From NCBI GenBank assembly GCA_027923505.1, contig BROI01000015.1, positions 434,001 through 498,000 of the forward strand: a DNA stretch of 64,000 nucleotides, written 5' to 3'. The DNA is from Mayamaea pseudoterrestris (taxonomy: Eukaryota > Bacillariophyta > Bacillariophyceae > Sellaphorales > Sellaphoraceae). Of this stretch, positions 4,473 to 23,670 are shown piece by piece (the first letter of the stretch is position 1; each line of letters begins with the position of its first letter). The position numbers and the translations under genes are program-made. The notes under the pieces were generated by a model. That model was given only the letters and a program-made list of their open reading frames with translations. It did not search any database and had not been told where the DNA came from.

Positions 4473-5915
4473 TTAGTAACACTCTGTGCAGCAACTGCAA
4501 GAAACCTCTTGACAGTCAGCCGTGAGCGCCTTGAAATCATACGCCGCCGACTGGATACGATCGCAGACCGTAGAAGGCATGGAGCCCGACAAGTTATTTT
4601 CGTAAAGCTCTAAAACTTCCAAGTCGGGCAAGTTGCTCAGCTCGGATGGGACTTGGCCACTCAAGCTGTTCTCGTACAACCAAACGCGACGAAGACCACT
4701 CAAAAGACCAATTTCTGTTGGAATTGGACCCGATAGAGTCGCATTAGTGATGGACAATGATGCCAAATCTGGATGATTCGATCCAATGCTTGTTGGAATG
4801 CTGCCTTCGATTGTGTTGCTGTCCAACCAGAGGGCAAAGATGGATGGCAAACTTCCGGATGACAGGAGCGTCGGTAGATCAATCGTCAAAAGGTTGCGGC
4901 GCAAGTAAAGGTAAATGAGGTTGGGAAGCTGCGCGATGCTGGAAGGAACGTCACCGCTCAAAAAGTTGGATTCGATTTCCAAATGAGTCAGCTTGGAGAG
5001 ATTTGAGAAAATGCTTCCGTCCATGGGTCCTTGCAGAATGTTGTAGCTCATGGTAAGCTTCGAGAGGCTCGTCAGAGCGGAAATTGAGGGCGGAATGCCC
5101 GACGTGCAAACGACGTAATTGTCTTCCATTAGAAGCGTCTCAAGGTTGCCAAGATGCGTGAAAGGTGTCACATTTGCATCTCCATCGACATATACACTAT
5201 TTGTCGTCAAGTCAAGCGTCGTGAGGCTCTGCAAGAATGCCATTTCCAAGGGTAATGTACCCGTCAAGGAATGCTCACGGAGCAAGATACCAACGACACT
5301 GCTGCCATCCTCACTGCATGTCACTCCTTCCCAGTCACATTCCGTAATGCTGCTAATCCAGTTGATGGAGCTTGTCCATCCAGGAATGTCTCCTTCTCCA
5401 TTATTCTTGATGATCTGCGAGTTGGATTGGCTAAAGGTGCTGTAGTAAAAGACGCCGAGTGCGTAGCGCTGCACCTTTTGCGCGCGCTCCAGCAAGGCAT
5501 AGTTTCTTGATCCAGCTACCCACTCCAGCGCAAGCTGTTGCGGAGTCCCGACCTCCAGCATCTTTGAGTCACCATTGAGGCCGTACGTATTGTAGTAAGA
5601 TAGAAGAGTGTTCCCAAACTCTTGCTTGTTGGTTTGGACAACATTGGCTGGAAGCTCCGGCACAAAGACCACCGGTCCATCGTTGCCATCCCTCTTGGCC
5701 TGCGCAGCCTTGCTGGAAGGAACGGCAATCGCTGTAATCAGCAAGACCAGACCAAGAAAACCTCCAAAGTAAAAGACTTCCCTGCGCGCATACCAAGGGC
5801 GGCGCGACCGATTGTCCAACGAACTGATCGTCTCGTGAAAGTCAGCCATCATATCAGCGTCGTCATCCTTCAAGGATAGTTCGTGAGTATCGTAAATGGA
5901 GTCGTTTGCATGCAT
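4473..5915 (-). CDS. Type II membrane leucine-rich-repeat protein
   Basis: Single exon of 480 residues. A hydrophilic, acidic N-terminal tail of about 65 residues precedes one membrane segment (VFYFGGFLGLVLLITAIAV, about residues 68-86), predicting a type II protein with the rest outside the cell or in a lumen. The ectodomain opens with the diatom LRR-protein preamble (RYALGVFYYST then CDWEGVTCSEDGS). About eight to ten plant-type LRRs follow, with GTLPLEMAFLQ, GPIPTEIGLLSGL and GQVPSELSNLPDL style consensus. It ends in a short Cys cluster (VSCSCCTECY). No kinase domain follows, so it is receptor-like only in its outer part. It resembles the LRR regions of the genes at 6222 and 22054. Ligand and function are unknown; a role in cell-surface recognition or adhesion is inference. 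Confidence 0.88.
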   Translation of the reverse strand: MHANDSIYDTHELSLKDDDADMMADFHETISSLDNRSRRPWYARREVFYFGGFLGLVLLITAIAVPSSKAAQAKRDGNDGPVVFVPELPANVVQTNKQEFGNTLLSYYNTYGLNGDSKMLEVGTPQQLALEWVAGSRNYALLERAQKVQRYALGVFYYSTFSQSNSQIIKNNGEGDIPGWTSSINWISSITECDWEGVTCSEDGSSVVGILLREHSLTGTLPLEMAFLQSLTTLDLTTNSVYVDGDANVTPFTHLGNLETLLMEDNYVVCTSGIPPSISALTSLSKLTMSYNILQGPMDGSIFSNLSKLTHLEIESNFLSGDVPSSIAQLPNLIYLYLRRNLLTIDLPTLLSSGSLPSIFALWLDSNTIEGSIPTSIGSNHPDLASLSITNATLSGPIPTEIGLLSGLRRVWLYENSLSGQVPSELSNLPDLEVLELYENNLSGSMPSTVCDRIQSAAYDFKALTADCQEVSCSCCTECY

Positions 5916-6221: not shown

Positions 6222-9200
6222 TTAATTGTCCAAGCAAGCGGTGCAACAGTTTTCCGTAGGGCACACGGTGCAGTTGGCGTAAACCATCACCTCGCGACCG
6301 CAGAGGGCCGTCGGCAGCTGACTATCAAAGGCATTTCCAAACAGGCCAAGATACTGTAGCCCAGTAAGTGATCCGAGTTGCGATGGAAGAGTGCCTGTCA
6401 TTTCGTTAAAGTCGAGCTGCAAAAAGTACAGGTCCTTCAAAGCGCCAATCTTGCCCGAGATGGATCCAGCTAACATGTTATTGTTCAAATCCAATACTCG
6501 AAGCGACGTCGCACCAAACAGCTCACTAGGCAAGTCCCCTGTAAGCATATTCTTGTCAAGATCAAGGTACTGCAGATGTGGAAGGGAACCGAGCGATGAA
6601 GGGATTTCTCCTGTCAGCAAGTTATCGTCGAGACCAAGCTCCTCCAAATACGGCAAGCTGCTCAGTTCCTCTGGTATGCTTCCACTCAAATAAGTTTTGT
6701 CCAGATTAATAGCGACGACAAATCCCTCGTTGTTGCATCGAATACCACCCCAAGCGCATTCTTTCGAGCTGCTTAAAAACAAATCGCCGTCGCAAGAGCT
6801 TGAGTCGCTCTTGGCCGAGCATTTAGTCCATTCATCACCAGATGTTGAAAAGTAAAGAGTAGCCAAAGCATACCTTTGAAAGAGTAATTGGTCAGTAGGA
6901 CAGACAAAGAATGCATCTTCGCTGCTAATCCAAGATAAAGCACGAGCTTGAGGAGATGTTGAATCATTTATTGCGCTTTCGTTTGATATGAATGATAGAT
7001 TAGAGGCAATAGCTGCCTTTCGTTCGCTCGACGACATCATGCATACAGTCGTTTTTGTCGACGGGTTTGCGGTAGTGACGGCAGTCGGAGACGGTTGTCC
7101 AGGCAGTTGTGACGGCTGTCCTGAAGAGAGATTTGAATTCTCTTCAGTATTTAAAGCTGAAGGACTCAAGGAACCAGCTGCATTGAGCAGCGAAGTAGGA
7201 AGAAAGCTGGGTGTAACGGAAGTGAGCGCAAGAGGACTTGCAGTAGGTGCTTTACTGGGAGTGTCGCTCACTAGCTCCGTCGGGTGGTAGCTTGGTTTGT
7301 TCAAAGGGGACATACTCGACAACGCCGGCGAAAGCGTGAGTTGTGAAGGGCTAACTGATGTTAGAAACGTTGGGAAGTGAGACTGAACAATTGACGGCAC
7401 TGGGCTTGAAGGGTCGGATAAAGAAGACGTAGGGGAACGCGACGGCAAATCAGATGGTCGAGAGCTTGTGGCAGTGGGCATTCTGCTTGGAAGGTCTGAA
7501 GGTGCGTCTGATACAACCTTTGCCTTTGTTGGCTTAGAATCAGGTAAAGATGATGGATATTGAGACGGTAAAGCCGGCGTAGTGCTCGGAAAGTCTGATG
7601 GTGCATCGGACGCGGCAAGCATACTTGTTGGCGACAGGCTGGGGGAATCTGATGATACAAAGCTTGGAGAGAGCGATGGAATGTCCGATAATCCGATAGT
7701 CGACCTGACAGTCGGTGTCGTGCTAGGATCATCTGAGGGTGCATCAGATGCTAGTAAACTCGTTGGTGAAGGAGTGGGGAAGTCTGTTGTTCTATCGCTG
7801 GGTTGCATCGATGGTGTGTCGGAAAGTTTAAGGGTGGGAAGCACGGACGGCGAATCTGAAAAGAGTAAGGTCGGTACGAAACTAGGTCTATCCGAAAGCA
7901 ACTGATGGCATTTACGAAAAAGAGTCAGAAAACAATGGTTGACAATGTAATTGACACCGGTAGACAAAAACTTACCGCACTTGGAAAAGCAGTCGCTGTC
8001 GGCTCGACCGTCGGCGTGTCGCTGGGAACATCAGGCTGCTCAGAAGAAATTCCTTTTGGTGGGGACGTGGAGCCAGAGGAGGGATGCACACTTGGTTCAT
8101 TATCCGAAGATGCAGAATAGTTCTTGCAATCGATGATACAGTTTTGAGCCCGCTGGAAGCCAATGTTCAGATACGTCGCTATAGAGTCCTTGCAGTCAGC
8201 ACAAGGACAAAGTTCGACTGCGAGGCAAACAACAGTATTTAATTCAGCGCATGTGGTGGTAACCGTAGGAAGAGTATTAACGAGGCAAGAATCACAAGCG
8301 GTAACAGAAACATCATCCATCTTGGTGAAGAAACAAGCTTCCAAGTTTGCCTGTGCTGTCATATCATGCAATACTTCCCAGGTCGGTGATTGTGACGGAT
8401 ATGCGCTGCGTGTAATTATTGGGATGTAAGTTGGTTTGTCGGAAAGTATTGAGCGGACGCCCGACGGTGACCCAGAATCAGAGCTGCTTGGTACTTGCGT
8501 CGGCCGATGATTATCAGGGACGGAACTTGGACGAATTAATGCTTGGCATCCAACGGAGCATCCAGCGCTGGCTTCAAAGCCACACGTCAAATAGTTTTCA
8601 ATTTCCGCGTAGCATAAGTCGCATGGACACTTTGCGACGGCTTCACAAGCGAGTGACTCTATGTCGCTACATGATGCTCCGGGTTGGGGCAGAAAGTCAA
8701 CGGTGCAGCTATCACAGATTTCTGAACCAAGTTCGGTGTAATATCGTTGGTAGCATTGATCCAAATACTCGGGCGCATTGACGCATGAGATTGGTCCAAG
8801 TGTGGGACTACTCGACGGCAGATCGCTTGGTAGTAAAGTCGGAGCACGTGATGGCATTGCGCTCAGCGATTTGCAATCAACATGGCATCCTCGACTGCTC
8901 TCCAAGCCACAAGTAAGATAATTCTCTATCGCAACTTCACATGGCGAGCAGGGGCATGATTCAATGGCGTTGCAAACAGAATATTCTGTATCGCCGCAGC
9001 TATCGTCGTCGCTGGACATTGCTATCGTTACACATGCATCACATTTCACAGATGTTTCTTCATCCATTTCGGCATCGAAGCATTGGTAAAGGTATGATAT
9101 CGCGTTGGTGCACGACATGGGTCCAAGCGTGGGATGGACAGTTGGCGATGAAAATGGCCGATTCGATGGGAGAGACATCATCGACGAGGCAGGAGTTGCG

Positions 9201-12200
9201 CTGGGTAGCCTGGAAGGTGTGCCATCGCAGTCCATTAAGCATCCACGTGTTTCCTCAAAGCCGCACGCTAAAAACACTTCCAAAGGTTCTGCACATGGGC
9301 CACAATTACAAAAGGCAAGTGCTCCGCATGTGATTGATTCTAGATCACCACAATTTGTCGTCTTTGGTGGAATCAAATCGACGACACACTGGTCACACTC
9401 CTGTACTGCCTGATCGTTGATCTCGACCGCAAAACATTGCTCAAGTCGTTGTCTCGCGTTGTTGCACGTCAAGGAGCTGAAGGTTGGCAAAGCAGAAGTT
9501 AATTCTAATATCCTTGCCGACGGGGCATTGCTAGAAATATCACTGTACGCCGTTGGGACAGAGTCTTCTTTCGATTCTAGGGAAGTTGGGTAGTTTGACG
9601 AGAAGTGTGTGCCTTGAGGCCTATGCGATGGAAAATCTCTTGATCTAATTGTAACGCCTCCTGGTGAAACGCTGGGACGAGCCGGTCTGCCGTCGATCCC
9701 GCCGAAAATATGGGACGGCTCATAGGTGGGACTGTCGGATATAGCGTCAGAATTGAAGGGAATCGGCGGTGAAGAAGAGTCACTTGATGGGTAGACTGTA
9801 AATTTCGTCGTCGCTTGCGGCGCGAGTGTTGGCAAGTCCCTCGATCCATTTGAAGAAAGCTCGGGAGACGCACTAGGAAAGTTTGATCGATCCCTCGCTC
9901 CAACTCCCCCAAATTTAAAAGAGGGTGCGGCAGAAGGAGATGGGTTGTCTGTGATTTCCAGATTTGACGACGCGCTTGGCGAGTCCGACGGAAACGCAGA
10001 CACAATTTTCGGATTCGTCAATGGAGCACTTGATGATCGTGGCATCGATGTCGGCCGGTCACTCAATCCATTGGATTTGTCTTCAGGCGACAGGCTAGGA
10101 ATGTCTGATCTAACATGTCCGCCAATCATTAAAGAAGGTGCGCTGGATGGAAGATCGGATGGCTGGTCCGAAGCGGCGTAATTTGGCGTAAAACTTGGCA
10201 GGTCTGATGATGACTCCCAACTAATTGATGGAGTAACCGATATATGAAGAGTGGCTTGTGGCATGGCTTCGCCTCCGACTCTGTCAAAAATCAAGGAAGG
10301 TTCGTTCGACGGGCGATCCGATGAGGCATCGGAAACGGTCAGACTTGACAAGGAGCTTGGCAAATCTGAAGGCGATTCAGAAGTGATGGACGGATAATCT
10401 GACGGAATACTCGAGAGCTGGGGAATGGTAGTTGGCAGGTCTCTGGATCCGTTGATTATGTCTGCAGGCGACGTACTTGGGTAGTCTGATCTGTCGTCTG
10501 CGCCTCCAAAAACAAAGGAGGGTGAAGTAGACGGACGATCTGACAAGTCGGGTGATGAGTGCGAGGACAAGACATGTGGCCTGTCCGATGGCAAGATGCC
10601 TGGTTGAGCACTGTTCGTTGTGGCACCTGGCGATATACTTGGAAAGGCTAAATAGTCATCTGCACCTCCTTCTCCTTCGAAAACAAAGGGAGGGGAAGTA
10701 GATGGACTATCCGAGGGCGCGTCGGATGTAGAAGGCGATGGCAAGACACTTGGCCAGTTCGATGGCAGCATGCTCGGTTGGTCACTTGGAACTCTGCTTG
10801 GAGCATCGGACTGTTGCTCAGAAGGAACGTCGCTTGGAAAAATGCTCAGCCGGCTTGAAGGAGCATCGCTGAGGTTTGAGCTTGACTGGAGGGACGGTGT
10901 ATTGCTCAGAGCAATACTTGGTTGACTTGAAGGGACATCGCTCGAAAGCTCACTAGGTTGGAGTGACGGAGTATCGCTTGAAGGCAGACTAGGTTGCTTT
11001 GTTGGTGCATTCATCGGAGCCCTACTTGACTGTTTGATCGGTTGTACTGAGGGCTGATCACTCAAAATCGAAGCTGCAAGCACAGTTGGAATGTTGCTTG
11101 AAGGAGAACTTGACCCCTCGCTGGGTAGCAAAGAAGGTTGATCGCTCACAACGGAACTCGGTGGCGATGAAAGGACGTCGCGAGGAGAACCACTTGATTG
11201 CTCGCTAACCACCAATGACGGCTGATTACTTAAATTCGAAGTCGGGATCCTTGTTGAAATGTCGCTTGAAGTAATACTTGGCCATTCACTGGGTTGCAAA
11301 GACGGTTCATCGCTTACAGAGGAGCTCGGTGGTGATGGAAGGACGTCCCGTGGAGAACTACTCCATTGCTCGCTAAATACCATTGACGGCTCATCACTTG
11401 GTTGCGTGGATGACTGCTCGACTCGCACTTTACTTGGCTGCACCGAAGGTTCGTAGCTCATTGTCGTTGCAGTGCTTGAGTGCAATGAAGGTTGATCACT
11501 GGATACAGTTATCGTTGGTAACGGATTATCGGTACTTGATTGCTCGCTATATAACACAGAGGGAGATTCGCTTGGAACGCTGCTAAGCTGCGCTGATGGT
11601 TGGCCACTAGGAACAGACATTAGTTGCAATGACGGAAAGTCGCTCGGATCGCTAGTTGGCAGCTCATTTATCGTGAGAAAAGGTTGGTTGCTGTGTGTCG
11701 AAGTTGAAAGCACATTGCTAGGACTCAAAGTCAATGTACCTGTTGGAGCAGCGCTTGAGCTTATAGTCGGACTTGATGTCGGCATATTCGTTGAATATAT
11801 GCTTGGTTCGTTGCTTGGAAGCGATGACTTCGCATCTTGAGGCAACACGCTTGAAGACTCCGAAGGCGAGCTTGTCGGCAAAGACGTCGGCAGGTCCGCC
11901 GCATCATAACAATAGTTGCGGTCTCTAGTACCGAATCCTTCACATCCTGGAACGGGCTCATAGTATGTTCGCACCCAGCAGCGCAAGTCACCAGTGCAGT
12001 CATCGTCATTGTAGCATTCTCCTTGACATTTTTGCAACGGATACTCGAGGTAGTTGTCGGCGCCGTCTCCCATAACGACCAAGATTCCTGGCAAAGGCTT
12101 GTAGCAATAGTCAAGCATGCTTACTCCCTCACCGGCGCATCCAGGGACAGTACCGAAACCATTGCGTTTAAAGCATGACAAACCAAACGCGCATTGGTCA

Positions 12201-12607
12201 TCAGTATTGCAGTCGCCTTGGCAGTTCTGAAGGTTTTCTCCATAAGGAGGCTCGCCAACATATACTAAAGCAGGAAATGATACATCTTCCTTTGTAGAGT
12301 TTGCTGATGCTTCCGTGAAATCAGTAGGTTCAGGCTTGCTCGTCGCCTCGCTCGTCTCGGAGGTTTGCTCGATGACAAATCCACTAAAATTCGGAACTCG
12401 TTCGAATCGCGAAAGATGCTTCATGTCTGCAATGTTCTTTGCATCATCGCATGAATATTTAAAGTCGTCTCCAACTTTCTCAAGTCGACAGTTGGCTTTA
12501 TCAGCTTGTGCTACAACGATGCAGTGGACGAGGACTATGGGAAGCAATACGGCGCTGCAGATTCTTCGACGCGGCGACAGCATTTTGCTCCGTTGTATTT
12601 GTTGCAT
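6222..12607 (-). CDS. Giant secreted Cys-module / PSD-repeat / LRR protein
   Basis: Two exons (12607-7976 and 7901-6222) join in frame across a 74 bp intron with GTAAGT and CATCAG ends, giving about 2,103 residues. Order of parts: a basic N terminus then a hydrophobic signal segment (VLLPIVLVHCIVVAQA, about 21-36); two six-Cys modules with identical spacing C-x3-C-x5-C-x5-C-x11-C-x10-C (about 125-235); about 800 residues of PSD/PSxxPS repeats (about 240-1040); four twelve-Cys modules (about 1045-1490); a second PSD tract (about 1495-1830); and a C-terminal LRR domain with the RYALATLYFSTSGDEW preamble, about five LRRs and a CxxxxCCxxC tail. There is no second membrane segment, so it is likely secreted or wall-bound. 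Pro/Ser/Thr-rich stretches are likely glycosylated. Comparable diatom proteins are known in cell walls and adhesive trails, but I cannot assign a function. Treating the halves as two genes is less likely because the splice join is clean. Confidence 0.85.
9487..11902 (-). repeat. PSD/PSxxPS coding repeat tract
   Basis: About 800 codons of the giant gene made of short units around SDxPSxxPS. Two higher orders are visible: a 56-residue unit (see 11020-11400) and, at about 9600-10730, roughly six diverged units marked by FVFGG/FKFGG/HIFGG, then RSDxPSxSP, then NGSRDLPTxxPQ. The tract probably grows and shrinks by unequal crossing-over or slippage. The copies are diverged, so expansion is not very recent. 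Confidence 0.85.
11020..11400 (-). repeat. 168 bp tandem coding repeat
   Basis: Two neighbouring copies with a 168 bp (56 codon) period: for example ggacgtc followed by gaggagaac at 11173 and the matching ggacgtc at 11341, and the atgttgcttg/atgtcgcttg pair at 11091 and 11259. A partial third copy flanks them. The period is a multiple of three and keeps the protein frame open. Confidence 0.8.
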
Positions 12608-22053: not shown

Positions 22054-23670
22054 ATGCAGCCTCTTCCAATCCAACAAGATGTCGATAAGGAGTCGCTTTG
22101 GAGTCGTCTCTGTCAACGATGCCTTCCCAAGACGGCTCTTGGCGCTGGCAAGATGGCTTGCCTCGTTTCCACTTGTGCCATGCTTCTCGGCATGGCCTTG
22201 CTAATCACATCGCAAGTCCTTCAGCACCAGCATGCGCAAGACTCGGCTCCGTCGCAAACTTTTGTCGACACTACCGACTATGACAGTCTTAACCAAGAAT
22301 GGATCCACCTTCGCGAAGAGCTTGTTCCAAACATCACCCTTGTTCTTCCACACTCACCACAGGCGCGCGCTCTCATGTGGCTTTCCGCTTTGAATCAGCA
22401 AAACTCTACCAAGAGTCCATCGCCTCTCCCAATTTCGGAGCGATATGCTCTCGCCGTCCTCTACTACCATTGGACTGGATGGGCTTGGCATATTCCGCAC
22501 GAGAATTCACTTGCGGGAGGAGGCTGGAACTTGACGTACATGGCTCAAGAGATGCAACAACTGCTTGAACGTGGCGGAACAGATGAATGCGAGTGGTTTG
22601 GCGTAACATGCGCGGACAATGCTGCTGCAACTGACGGCGTCAAGACGGTTACGGGCCTGAACATGACGGGAGGGACCAACTTTTTTCTTCGTGGAACCAT
22701 CCCATCCGAGCTGGGACTCTTGAGCAACATGCAAGCCTTTTCAGTGGAAAGCAATCATTTGCTTGGGACGGTCCCGCACGAGCTGAGTGCCTGGTCGGAT
22801 TTGCGAAAGGTCTCTTTTCGCTTTAATTTACTCACTGGACTCGGTGAATCGTACAAGAGTTGGACTCAGCTTGAGGTCTTGGAGTTGGGAGAGAACAAGT
22901 TCCACGGCAACATTTCCTCGGCTGCCTTGCGCAACATGAGCAATTTACATACTCTCACGTTATCCAACAACCGGGAACTGCGCGCAGATGCTCCATTGTT
23001 CATTGATGCTGACAGCATAAATGGACCGCATTGGCCGAAGCTGGAGTACGTCTCGGTGGCTGTCACACAAGTCGAAGTTGACCTTTCATACTTTTCCGCC
23101 AAAAACTACCCCGTCTTGAAGAGCATTGACGCCGGACAAGCTGCATTCGCCGGATCGATCCCTGCGACGATTGGCGGCTTGACACATCTGGAGCTGCTCA
23201 ACATGATCAATCCCGTTGCTGGACAACTAAGCGGTTCGATTCCGTCGGAGATTGGCTTGTTGTCTGACACTCTCACGTTCCTCGCACTTGACGCGAGCGG
23301 CATTTCTGGTAGCATACCGACTGAAGTTGGCGAGCTGACCAATCTGCAACTGTTGAGCGTCATTATGAATTCAATCACTGGCTCCTTCCCGACGGAAATC
23401 GGTAATATGGCAAGTTTGGAACAGCTTTCCGTTTACCAAACCCATCTGACTGGAACCATACCAACTCAGGTCGGTCGTTGCACCAAGCTAGCCGAGCTCC
23501 AGGTCATGTACACTGATCTGACGGGAAGCATGCCGACTGAGATTTGCGCTCTTAAGGATAACACTCAGGATGAGCTCTTTATGATTGCAGCTTCCTGTGC
23601 TGTTAGAGCTAGCTCGGCAACTCAGCGGATGATAACGTGTACTTGCTGCGCCATATGTTACGGCGACTAG
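22054..23670 (+). CDS. Type II membrane leucine-rich-repeat protein
   Basis: Single exon, 538 residues. An N-terminal tail of about 30 residues is followed by one membrane segment (ACLVSTCAMLLGMALLITS, about 34-53), then an ectodomain. It has the same preamble as the LRR proteins at 4473 and 6222 (RYALAVLYYHWTGWAW, then CEWFGVTCADN). About ten LRRs follow with GTIPSELGLLSNMQ, GSIPSEIGLLSDTL, GSIPTEVGELTNLQ and GTIPTQVGRCTKL. The C terminus again carries a Cys cluster (TCTCCAICYGD). It has no kinase or other cytosolic signalling domain. Placement and layout match the 4473 protein, so the two are likely paralogues; ligand and function unknown. Confidence 0.88.
   Translation: MQPLPIQQDVDKESLWSRLCQRCLPKTALGAGKMACLVSTCAMLLGMALLITSQVLQHQHAQDSAPSQTFVDTTDYDSLNQEWIHLREELVPNITLVLPHSPQARALMWLSALNQQNSTKSPSPLPISERYALAVLYYHWTGWAWHIPHENSLAGGGWNLTYMAQEMQQLLERGGTDECEWFGVTCADNAAATDGVKTVTGLNMTGGTNFFLRGTIPSELGLLSNMQAFSVESNHLLGTVPHELSAWSDLRKVSFRFNLLTGLGESYKSWTQLEVLELGENKFHGNISSAALRNMSNLHTLTLSNNRELRADAPLFIDADSINGPHWPKLEYVSVAVTQVEVDLSYFSAKNYPVLKSIDAGQAAFAGSIPATIGGLTHLELLNMINPVAGQLSGSIPSEIGLLSDTLTFLALDASGISGSIPTEVGELTNLQLLSVIMNSITGSFPTEIGNMASLEQLSVYQTHLTGTIPTQVGRCTKLAELQVMYTDLTGSMPTEICALKDNTQDELFMIAASCAVRASSATQRMITCTCCAICYGD

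What the first reader, a model, noticed from the sequence alone, without database searches (positions are those of the whole stretch)
6222..12607. Giant secreted protein combining two kinds of Cys modules, PSD repeats and LRRs
Seen: one spliced frame of about 2,103 residues with a signal segment, two six-Cys modules of identical spacing, about 800 residues of PSD repeats, four twelve-Cys modules, a second PSD tract and a C-terminal LRR domain. Known: diatom cell-wall and adhesive-trail proteins often mix Pro/Ser/Thr linkers with Cys-rich modules. Inference: this is a large wall, mucilage or adhesion protein in which LRRs present a binding face on a long glycosylated stalk.
Basis: partly seen in the sequence, partly recalled or inferred. 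Interest (0 to 1): 0.72.

Follow-up and report, generated by a model that had tools for sequence, protein, structure and literature searches.

The report
Frustulin-domain and LRR chimeric wall protein
A diatom gene encodes a very large secreted protein that joins the calcium-binding domain of known diatom wall proteins, long serine-proline stalks and a helical cysteine domain that Pfam does not hold to a leucine-rich-repeat binding domain, which suggests a recognition domain tethered to the cell wall.

Summary
A 2,103-residue spliced frame is present (12607-7976 and 7901-6222, minus strand; 74-base GTAAGT...CAG intron, phase 0). The two six-Cys modules are frustulin ACR domains: they have the Cys spacing and hexapeptide motifs of 14 ACR modules in the same genome and of published ε-frustulin. 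The other Cys module is 3 x 12 Cys plus 1 x 10, not 4 x 12; it belongs to a second family of the genome, is confidently predicted as four helices, and matched no PDB fold at E <= 0.001. The repeats are a period-4 P[S/T]xx array; literal PSD is a minority form. The LRR is plant-type; of 25 relatives examined, 17 carry a transmembrane segment before the LRR. In the searches made, no other gene joins these parts. Best reading: a soluble, wall-docked LRR on Ser/Pro stalks. It is not a frustulin: no RxL pre-sequence, no Trp-rich domain. It may work like plant LRR-extensins without being one. New variant of a known kind; expression, location and ligand are untested.

The parts
7976..12607 (-). exon 1, residues 1-1544
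7902..7975 (-). intron, 74 nt, GTAAGT...CATCAG, phase 0, inside the second Ser/Pro tract
   Evidence: donor and acceptor forms resemble those of four likely frustulin introns in the same genome
6222..7901 (-). exon 2, residues 1545-2103 plus stop
12503..12607 (-). N-terminal signal segment, residues 1-35 (cleavage after AQA is my reading; no signal-peptide program was run)
   Evidence: only hydrophobic segment over threshold in the whole protein, residues 14-38
12104..12223 (-). ACR domain 1 (six Cys), residues 129-168, CQGDCN...VPGCAG
11909..12028 (-). ACR domain 2 (six Cys), residues 194-233, CQGECY...VPGCEG
9467..11893 (-). Ser/Pro tract 1, residues 239-1047, period-4 P[S/T]xx; no Cys
9227..9466 (-). 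12-Cys module 1, residues 1048-1127
8873..9112 (-). 12-Cys module 2, residues 1166-1245
8546..8785 (-). 12-Cys module 3, residues 1275-1354
8126..8365 (-). degenerate fourth module, residues 1415-1494, 10 Cys
7044..8125 (-). Ser/Pro tract 2, residues 1495-1830, interrupted by the intron
6225..6926 (-). LRR domain with N-terminal cap and C-terminal Cys-rich cap, residues 1870-2103

Best explanation
A diatom secreted protein of about 217 kDa before modification (residues 37-2103) that places a small plant-type LRR domain outside the cell while docking in the wall's organic layer. Shown here by sequence: signal-like segment, two frustulin-type ACR domains, long Ser/Pro tetrapeptide tracts, an array of four Cys-rich modules (predicted helical), LRR with caps, no later hydrophobic segment. 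Inferred: the ACR pair binds Ca2+ and holds the N-terminus in the wall casing; the Ser/Pro tracts are O-glycosylated and extended; the 12-Cys array is a rigid spacer or oligomerisation node between the two flexible tracts; the LRR binds a protein, peptide or glycan at the outer surface. Two frustulins of this genome that were scanned join ACR domains to a ricin-B-like lectin domain; this protein joins them to an LRR instead.
For: ACR identity: spacing 3-5-5-11-10 lies within the range of 14 of 14 distinct genome ACR modules found (3-5-5-11-10 to 12; the pattern fixed gaps 1 and 3, gaps 2, 4 and 5 were free), 45-61% identical over the first 31 residues; published motifs CQGDCD and VPGCSG. A review gives Ca2+ affinity of ACR domains and the wall's organic matrix as the place of frustulins (PMC4557024 passages). 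A frustulin fused to GFP displayed it on the outermost surface of a diatom (PMC4712521 passages). No hydrophobic segment after the N-terminal one. LRR relatives: 149 matches in the genome (150 of 182 candidates scored); the 29 best loci other than the window's own are 25 distinct genes, of which 17 have a transmembrane segment before the LRR, 1 after it, 2 only an N-terminal signal-like segment and 5 none in the frame seen (my reading), so this LRR family looks extracellular. 12-Cys family: several members begin with a signal-like segment and have Ser/Pro or Thr/Pro linkers (by eye). The 12-Cys model has mean pLDDT 90.1 with four helices.
Against: No transcript, proteomic or localisation data. 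The protein lacks the RxL pre-sequence that 9 of 9 frustulin loci have before their first ACR, so its route to the wall may differ. ACR1 has 5 and ACR2 8 acidic residues of 40, and Ca2+ binding by these two is untested. The ACR model was poor (mean pLDDT 59). The region between signal and ACR1 has no relative in the genome (only itself, and one match at E 0.59). Two ACR domains may not retain a 217 kDa protein, which could instead be released into mucilage.
Confidence: 0.6

Rival explanations
1. Mucilage or adhesive-trail protein: the long Ser/Pro tracts are the functional part (mucin-like), and the Cys modules cross-link it into a gel; the LRR binds matrix partners.
For: About 1,145 residues of Ser/Pro tract; Cys-rich array; no later hydrophobic segment.
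Against: No GDPH motif, which passages in two papers tie to diatom adhesive proteins; ACR domains point to the wall casing; no data on raphe or trail.
Confidence: 0.2
2. Two genes: exon 1 is a secreted ACR/12-Cys protein and exon 2 a separate LRR protein; the intron is not spliced or the join is an artefact.
For: Unspliced, each part is an open frame of its own: 1,560 and 528 aa. Many other GT/GC-AG pairs would also keep the frame open.
Against: GTAAGT/CAG sites in phase 0, joined within one continuous Ser/Pro tract; the hydropathy scan of the joined frame finds its only segment over threshold at residues 14-38, so exon 2 alone would have no signal segment.
Confidence: 0.08
3. A giant, divergent frustulin with ordinary protective casing function, in which the LRR is incidental.
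For: Two ACR domains and proline-rich linkers.
Against: No RxL pre-sequence, no poly-Gly, no Trp-rich end; only 2 of 5 published frustulin criteria are clearly met, where that paper asks for at least three.
Confidence: 0.12

Closest known systems
Frustulins (diatom Ca2+-binding wall glycoproteins; ACR domain)
   Same: Two ACR domains with CQG[D/E]C and VPGC motifs and the same Cys spacing; signal-like segment; proline-rich linkers.
   Different: No RxL pre-sequence, no poly-Gly, no Trp-rich/ricin-B-like domain; adds a 12-Cys array and an LRR; 2,103 aa against 247-491 aa for the nine frames examined, of which four (L004, L005, L010, L015) stop at a likely intron.
Diatom plant-type LRR proteins (family of this genome; LRR expansions in Seminavis and Nitzschia putrida in print, passages)
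   Same: Plant-type 24-residue LRRs, N-cap and Cys-rich C-cap.
   Different: No transmembrane segment, where 17 of 25 relatives examined have one before the LRR; joined to wall-protein modules.
Plant LRR-extensins (LRX)
   Same: LRR plus a long Ser/Pro tract in a secreted protein without a transmembrane segment; LRX proteins are wall-anchored (starts of abstracts).
   Different: No SPPP extensin motif (0); reversed order of parts and absence of ACR and 12-Cys modules from LRX are recalled; independent origin assumed.
Pleuralins (PSCD domains)
   Same: Proline-rich part followed by repeated Cys modules of 80-90 aa and a variable C-terminus (review passages).
   Different: The large Cys modules have only 2.5-5% Pro; no PSCD sequence was at hand for comparison.

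Membership tests
Frustulin | ACR domains with two hexapeptide motifs | tested here: met
   two modules; motifs
Frustulin | pre-sequence: ER signal followed by a second signal; RxL site | tested here: not met
   signal-like segment present, but no RxL before residue 722; 9 of 9 frustulin loci have one at residues 38-56 counted from the first Met of the frame
Frustulin | Trp-rich (ricin-B-like) C-terminal domain | tested here: not met
   9 Trp in 2,103 residues; the C-terminus is LRR
Frustulin | poly-Gly linkers | tested here: not met
   no GGG; some published frustulins lack them too
Frustulin | proline-rich domains | tested here: met
   tracts with 15-17% Pro
Plant-type LRR family of this genome | LRR domain with N-cap, homologous to the family | tested here: met
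Plant-type LRR family of this genome | transmembrane anchor (usual, not universal: 18 of 25 genes examined) | tested here: not met
12-Cys family of this genome | 9-12-2-11-7-5-1-2-9-7-3 Cys spacing | tested here: met
   three modules; exactly the same spacing in 2 of the 12 other modules that the pattern caught, small length changes in the rest
Plant LRR-extensin | extensin SPPP(P) motifs | tested here: not met
   0 SPPP; motif recalled
Pleuralin | PSCD domain | tested here: inconclusive
   only composition compared; no PSCD sequence at hand
GDPH adhesive proteins | GDPH motif | tested here: not met

The most novel reading that the evidence does not exclude
Diatoms evolved, independently of plants, a wall-integrity or recognition system of the LRR-extensin kind: a wall-docked soluble LRR (this protein) that binds a secreted ligand and pairs with the membrane LRR proteins of the same family, so that wall and plasma membrane are coupled through the long stalk; and the 12-Cys four-helix domain is a new structural family.
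Probability: 0.15. Interest if true: 0.8.

Novelty: new variant of a known kind. Interest (0 to 1): 0.47.

Why it matters
It links two things studied apart in diatoms: the wall casing (frustulins) and the expanded extracellular LRR families, whose role is open. [quoted passage not shown] It offers a concrete, testable candidate for recognition at the wall. The 12-Cys domain gives a confident predicted fold without a PDB match at E <= 0.001.

Tried and rejected
Reeler-like N-terminus in some 12-Cys relatives: suggested by eye, no Pfam family in the two scanned (L018, L025), dropped. WAP relation of the ACR module: E 0.02, under the cut-off, not claimed. ACR structure: mean pLDDT 59, no fold search made. 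12-Cys in prokaryote genomes and in viral contigs: 38 and 47 pattern stretches, none confirmed. 12-Cys fold: PDB 0 of 61 listed matches with E <= 0.001, BFVD 0 of 95; a weak 2S-albumin hit (E 6.1) is not claimed. LRR donated by the neighbouring LRR gene at 4473-5915: not supported, 28.7% identity and 25th of 31 rows by score (some genes give two rows). Type III effector names in the NCBIfam output reflect LRRs only, far below their cut-offs. Passages of a Phaeodactylum proteome paper (PMC8977783) held neither frustulin nor LRR and were not used.

Full report
What is there. On the minus strand, exon 1 (12607-7976) and exon 2 (7901-6222) join across a 74-base GTAAGT...CATCAG intron in phase 0 into 2,103 codons. 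Many other GT/GC-AG pairs in the stretch searched would also keep the frame open, but this is the only one listed with the full GTAAGT donor; four likely frustulin introns in the same genome have, by my reading, GTAAG, GTATG or GTAGG donors and CAG or TAG acceptors. The longest window ORF, 1,560 aa, exceeds the longest in 50 Markov copies, 326 aa. The joined frame is acidic (pI 4.2, net charge -132 for residues 37-2103), has 12 N-glycosylation sequons and one hydrophobic segment, at its N-terminus.

The six-Cys modules are frustulin ACR domains. Own-genome searches with the pair and with a frustulin ACR pair lead to nine other ACR-bearing loci. All nine frames have an RxL motif at residues 38-56, one to three ACR modules, and behind them the start of a domain with ERKW or ERQW (8 of 9) or DRKW (L008); four of the frames stop there at a likely intron, so their ends were not seen. 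One further weak match (C4:290618, E 0.0035) was not examined. The nine loci hold 16 ACR motif matches, 14 distinct, and all 14 have 3-5-5-11 spacing with a last gap of 10-12 (the pattern fixed gaps 1 and 3). The window modules have 3-5-5-11-10 twice and are 45-61% identical to the 14 over 31 residues. Published passages give the same hexapeptides, CQGDCD and VPGCSG (PMC4712521), and Ca2+ affinity and location in the wall's organic matrix (PMC4557024).

It is not a frustulin. Of the five published criteria, of which that paper asks for three (PMC4712521), ACR and proline-rich parts are met; poly-Gly and the Trp-rich domain are not; the pre-sequence is half met: a signal-like segment, but no RxL before residue 722. 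The stretch between signal and ACR1 has no relative in the genome.

The 12-Cys modules. Three have 12 Cys with identical spacing, the fourth has 10. One search finds eight other loci in the genome at E below 1e-5, five of them on contig C17 (seven of the eight also). By eye, several begin with a signal-like segment and have Ser/Pro or Thr/Pro linkers, and two end in a hydrophobic tail (L017, L028). In a FastTree tree of the modules the four of this gene group together (local support 0.89) with weak inner branches; three of the 15 harvested modules were the window's own copies, so 12 are independent, and modules that depart from the pattern were not harvested. The model from four window rows has mean pLDDT 90.1 and four helices; no PDB chain and no viral model matched at E <= 0.001 (0 of 61, 0 of 95), no Pfam family matched any of the four, and a profile search of PDB sequences gave only one match, E 9.1.

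The Ser/Pro tracts. Residues agree above expectation at lags of 4, 8, 12, 16, 20, 24 and 28 in both long tracts. Pfam's PT disordered repeat is seen under its cut-off. Glycosylation and an extended shape are inference.

The LRR. Five 24-residue repeats of plant type follow an N-cap; the top-listed solved structures are plant receptor ectodomains. The genome holds a large family (149 matches, 150 of 182 candidates scored). I examined the 29 best loci other than the window's own, 25 distinct genes: 17 show a transmembrane segment before the LRR, one after it, two only a signal-like segment, five neither in the frame seen (my reading). That the 17 are type II proteins is inference from this order. 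One relative has a Ser/Pro stretch between membrane segment and LRR (L042), and one has a signal-like segment and a Ser/Thr/Pro-rich part before the LRR (L034), so an LRR on such a stalk is not unique to this gene; the join with ACR and 12-Cys is, in these searches. Reading the match lists together, the only other place where two of the three kinds lie within 10 kb is C16: a weak 12-Cys match (286050-286301, minus, E 0.002, one in-frame stop) about 5 kb from an LRR gene on the plus strand (279922-280929); the 12-Cys pattern found no module in that locus (L032). The lists are lower bounds by the tool's own statement.

How it may work. Two frustulins scanned end in a Ricin_B_lectin match over the cut-off (2 of 2; already in print for Fistulifera). 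Here the ACR end is kept and a different recognition domain, an LRR, is placed at the far end of about 1,600 residues of stalk and Cys modules. GFP fused to a frustulin reaches the outermost surface in Fistulifera (passages), so wall docking through such a protein can display a partner domain. The functional parallel is the plant LRR-extensins, wall-anchored proteins that bind RALF peptides (starts of abstracts). This gene does not meet the extensin motif, and no ligand or partner is known.

Limits. No transcript, proteome, or related diatom genome was available. The listings of ten paper searches showed no protein joining ACR and LRR. In one search, which listed only papers with four of its five terms, one of seven (PMC11685980) holds both 'frustulin' and 'LRR', in unrelated places; papers with fewer of the terms were not listed. 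The library lacks most subscription papers, including the original frustulin paper and the Amphora trail proteome.

Noticed in passing
window 4473-5915 (-) and 22054-23670 (+): Two further LRR proteins, with an N-terminal hydrophobic segment and a C-terminal CxCC motif by eye.
   Followed up: partly
G000:C6 about 770451-771182: LRR matches lie in an open frame of about 9,570-9,600 codons; not fetched.
   Followed up: no
G000:C1 1346-1378 kb (L004, L005, L009): Three frustulin genes within about 31 kb, two of them nearly identical in the frames seen.
   Followed up: no
G000:C17 179-387 kb (L017, L018, L023, L025, L028): Five loci of the 12-Cys family on one contig; L018, L025 and L026 (C4) have N-terminal regions that look alike by eye and that Pfam does not know in the two scanned (L018, L025).
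   Followed up: partly
G000:C17 243828-244358 (L027): 12-Cys match with in-frame stops (3 TGA, 1 TAA), either an intron or a decaying copy.
   Followed up: no
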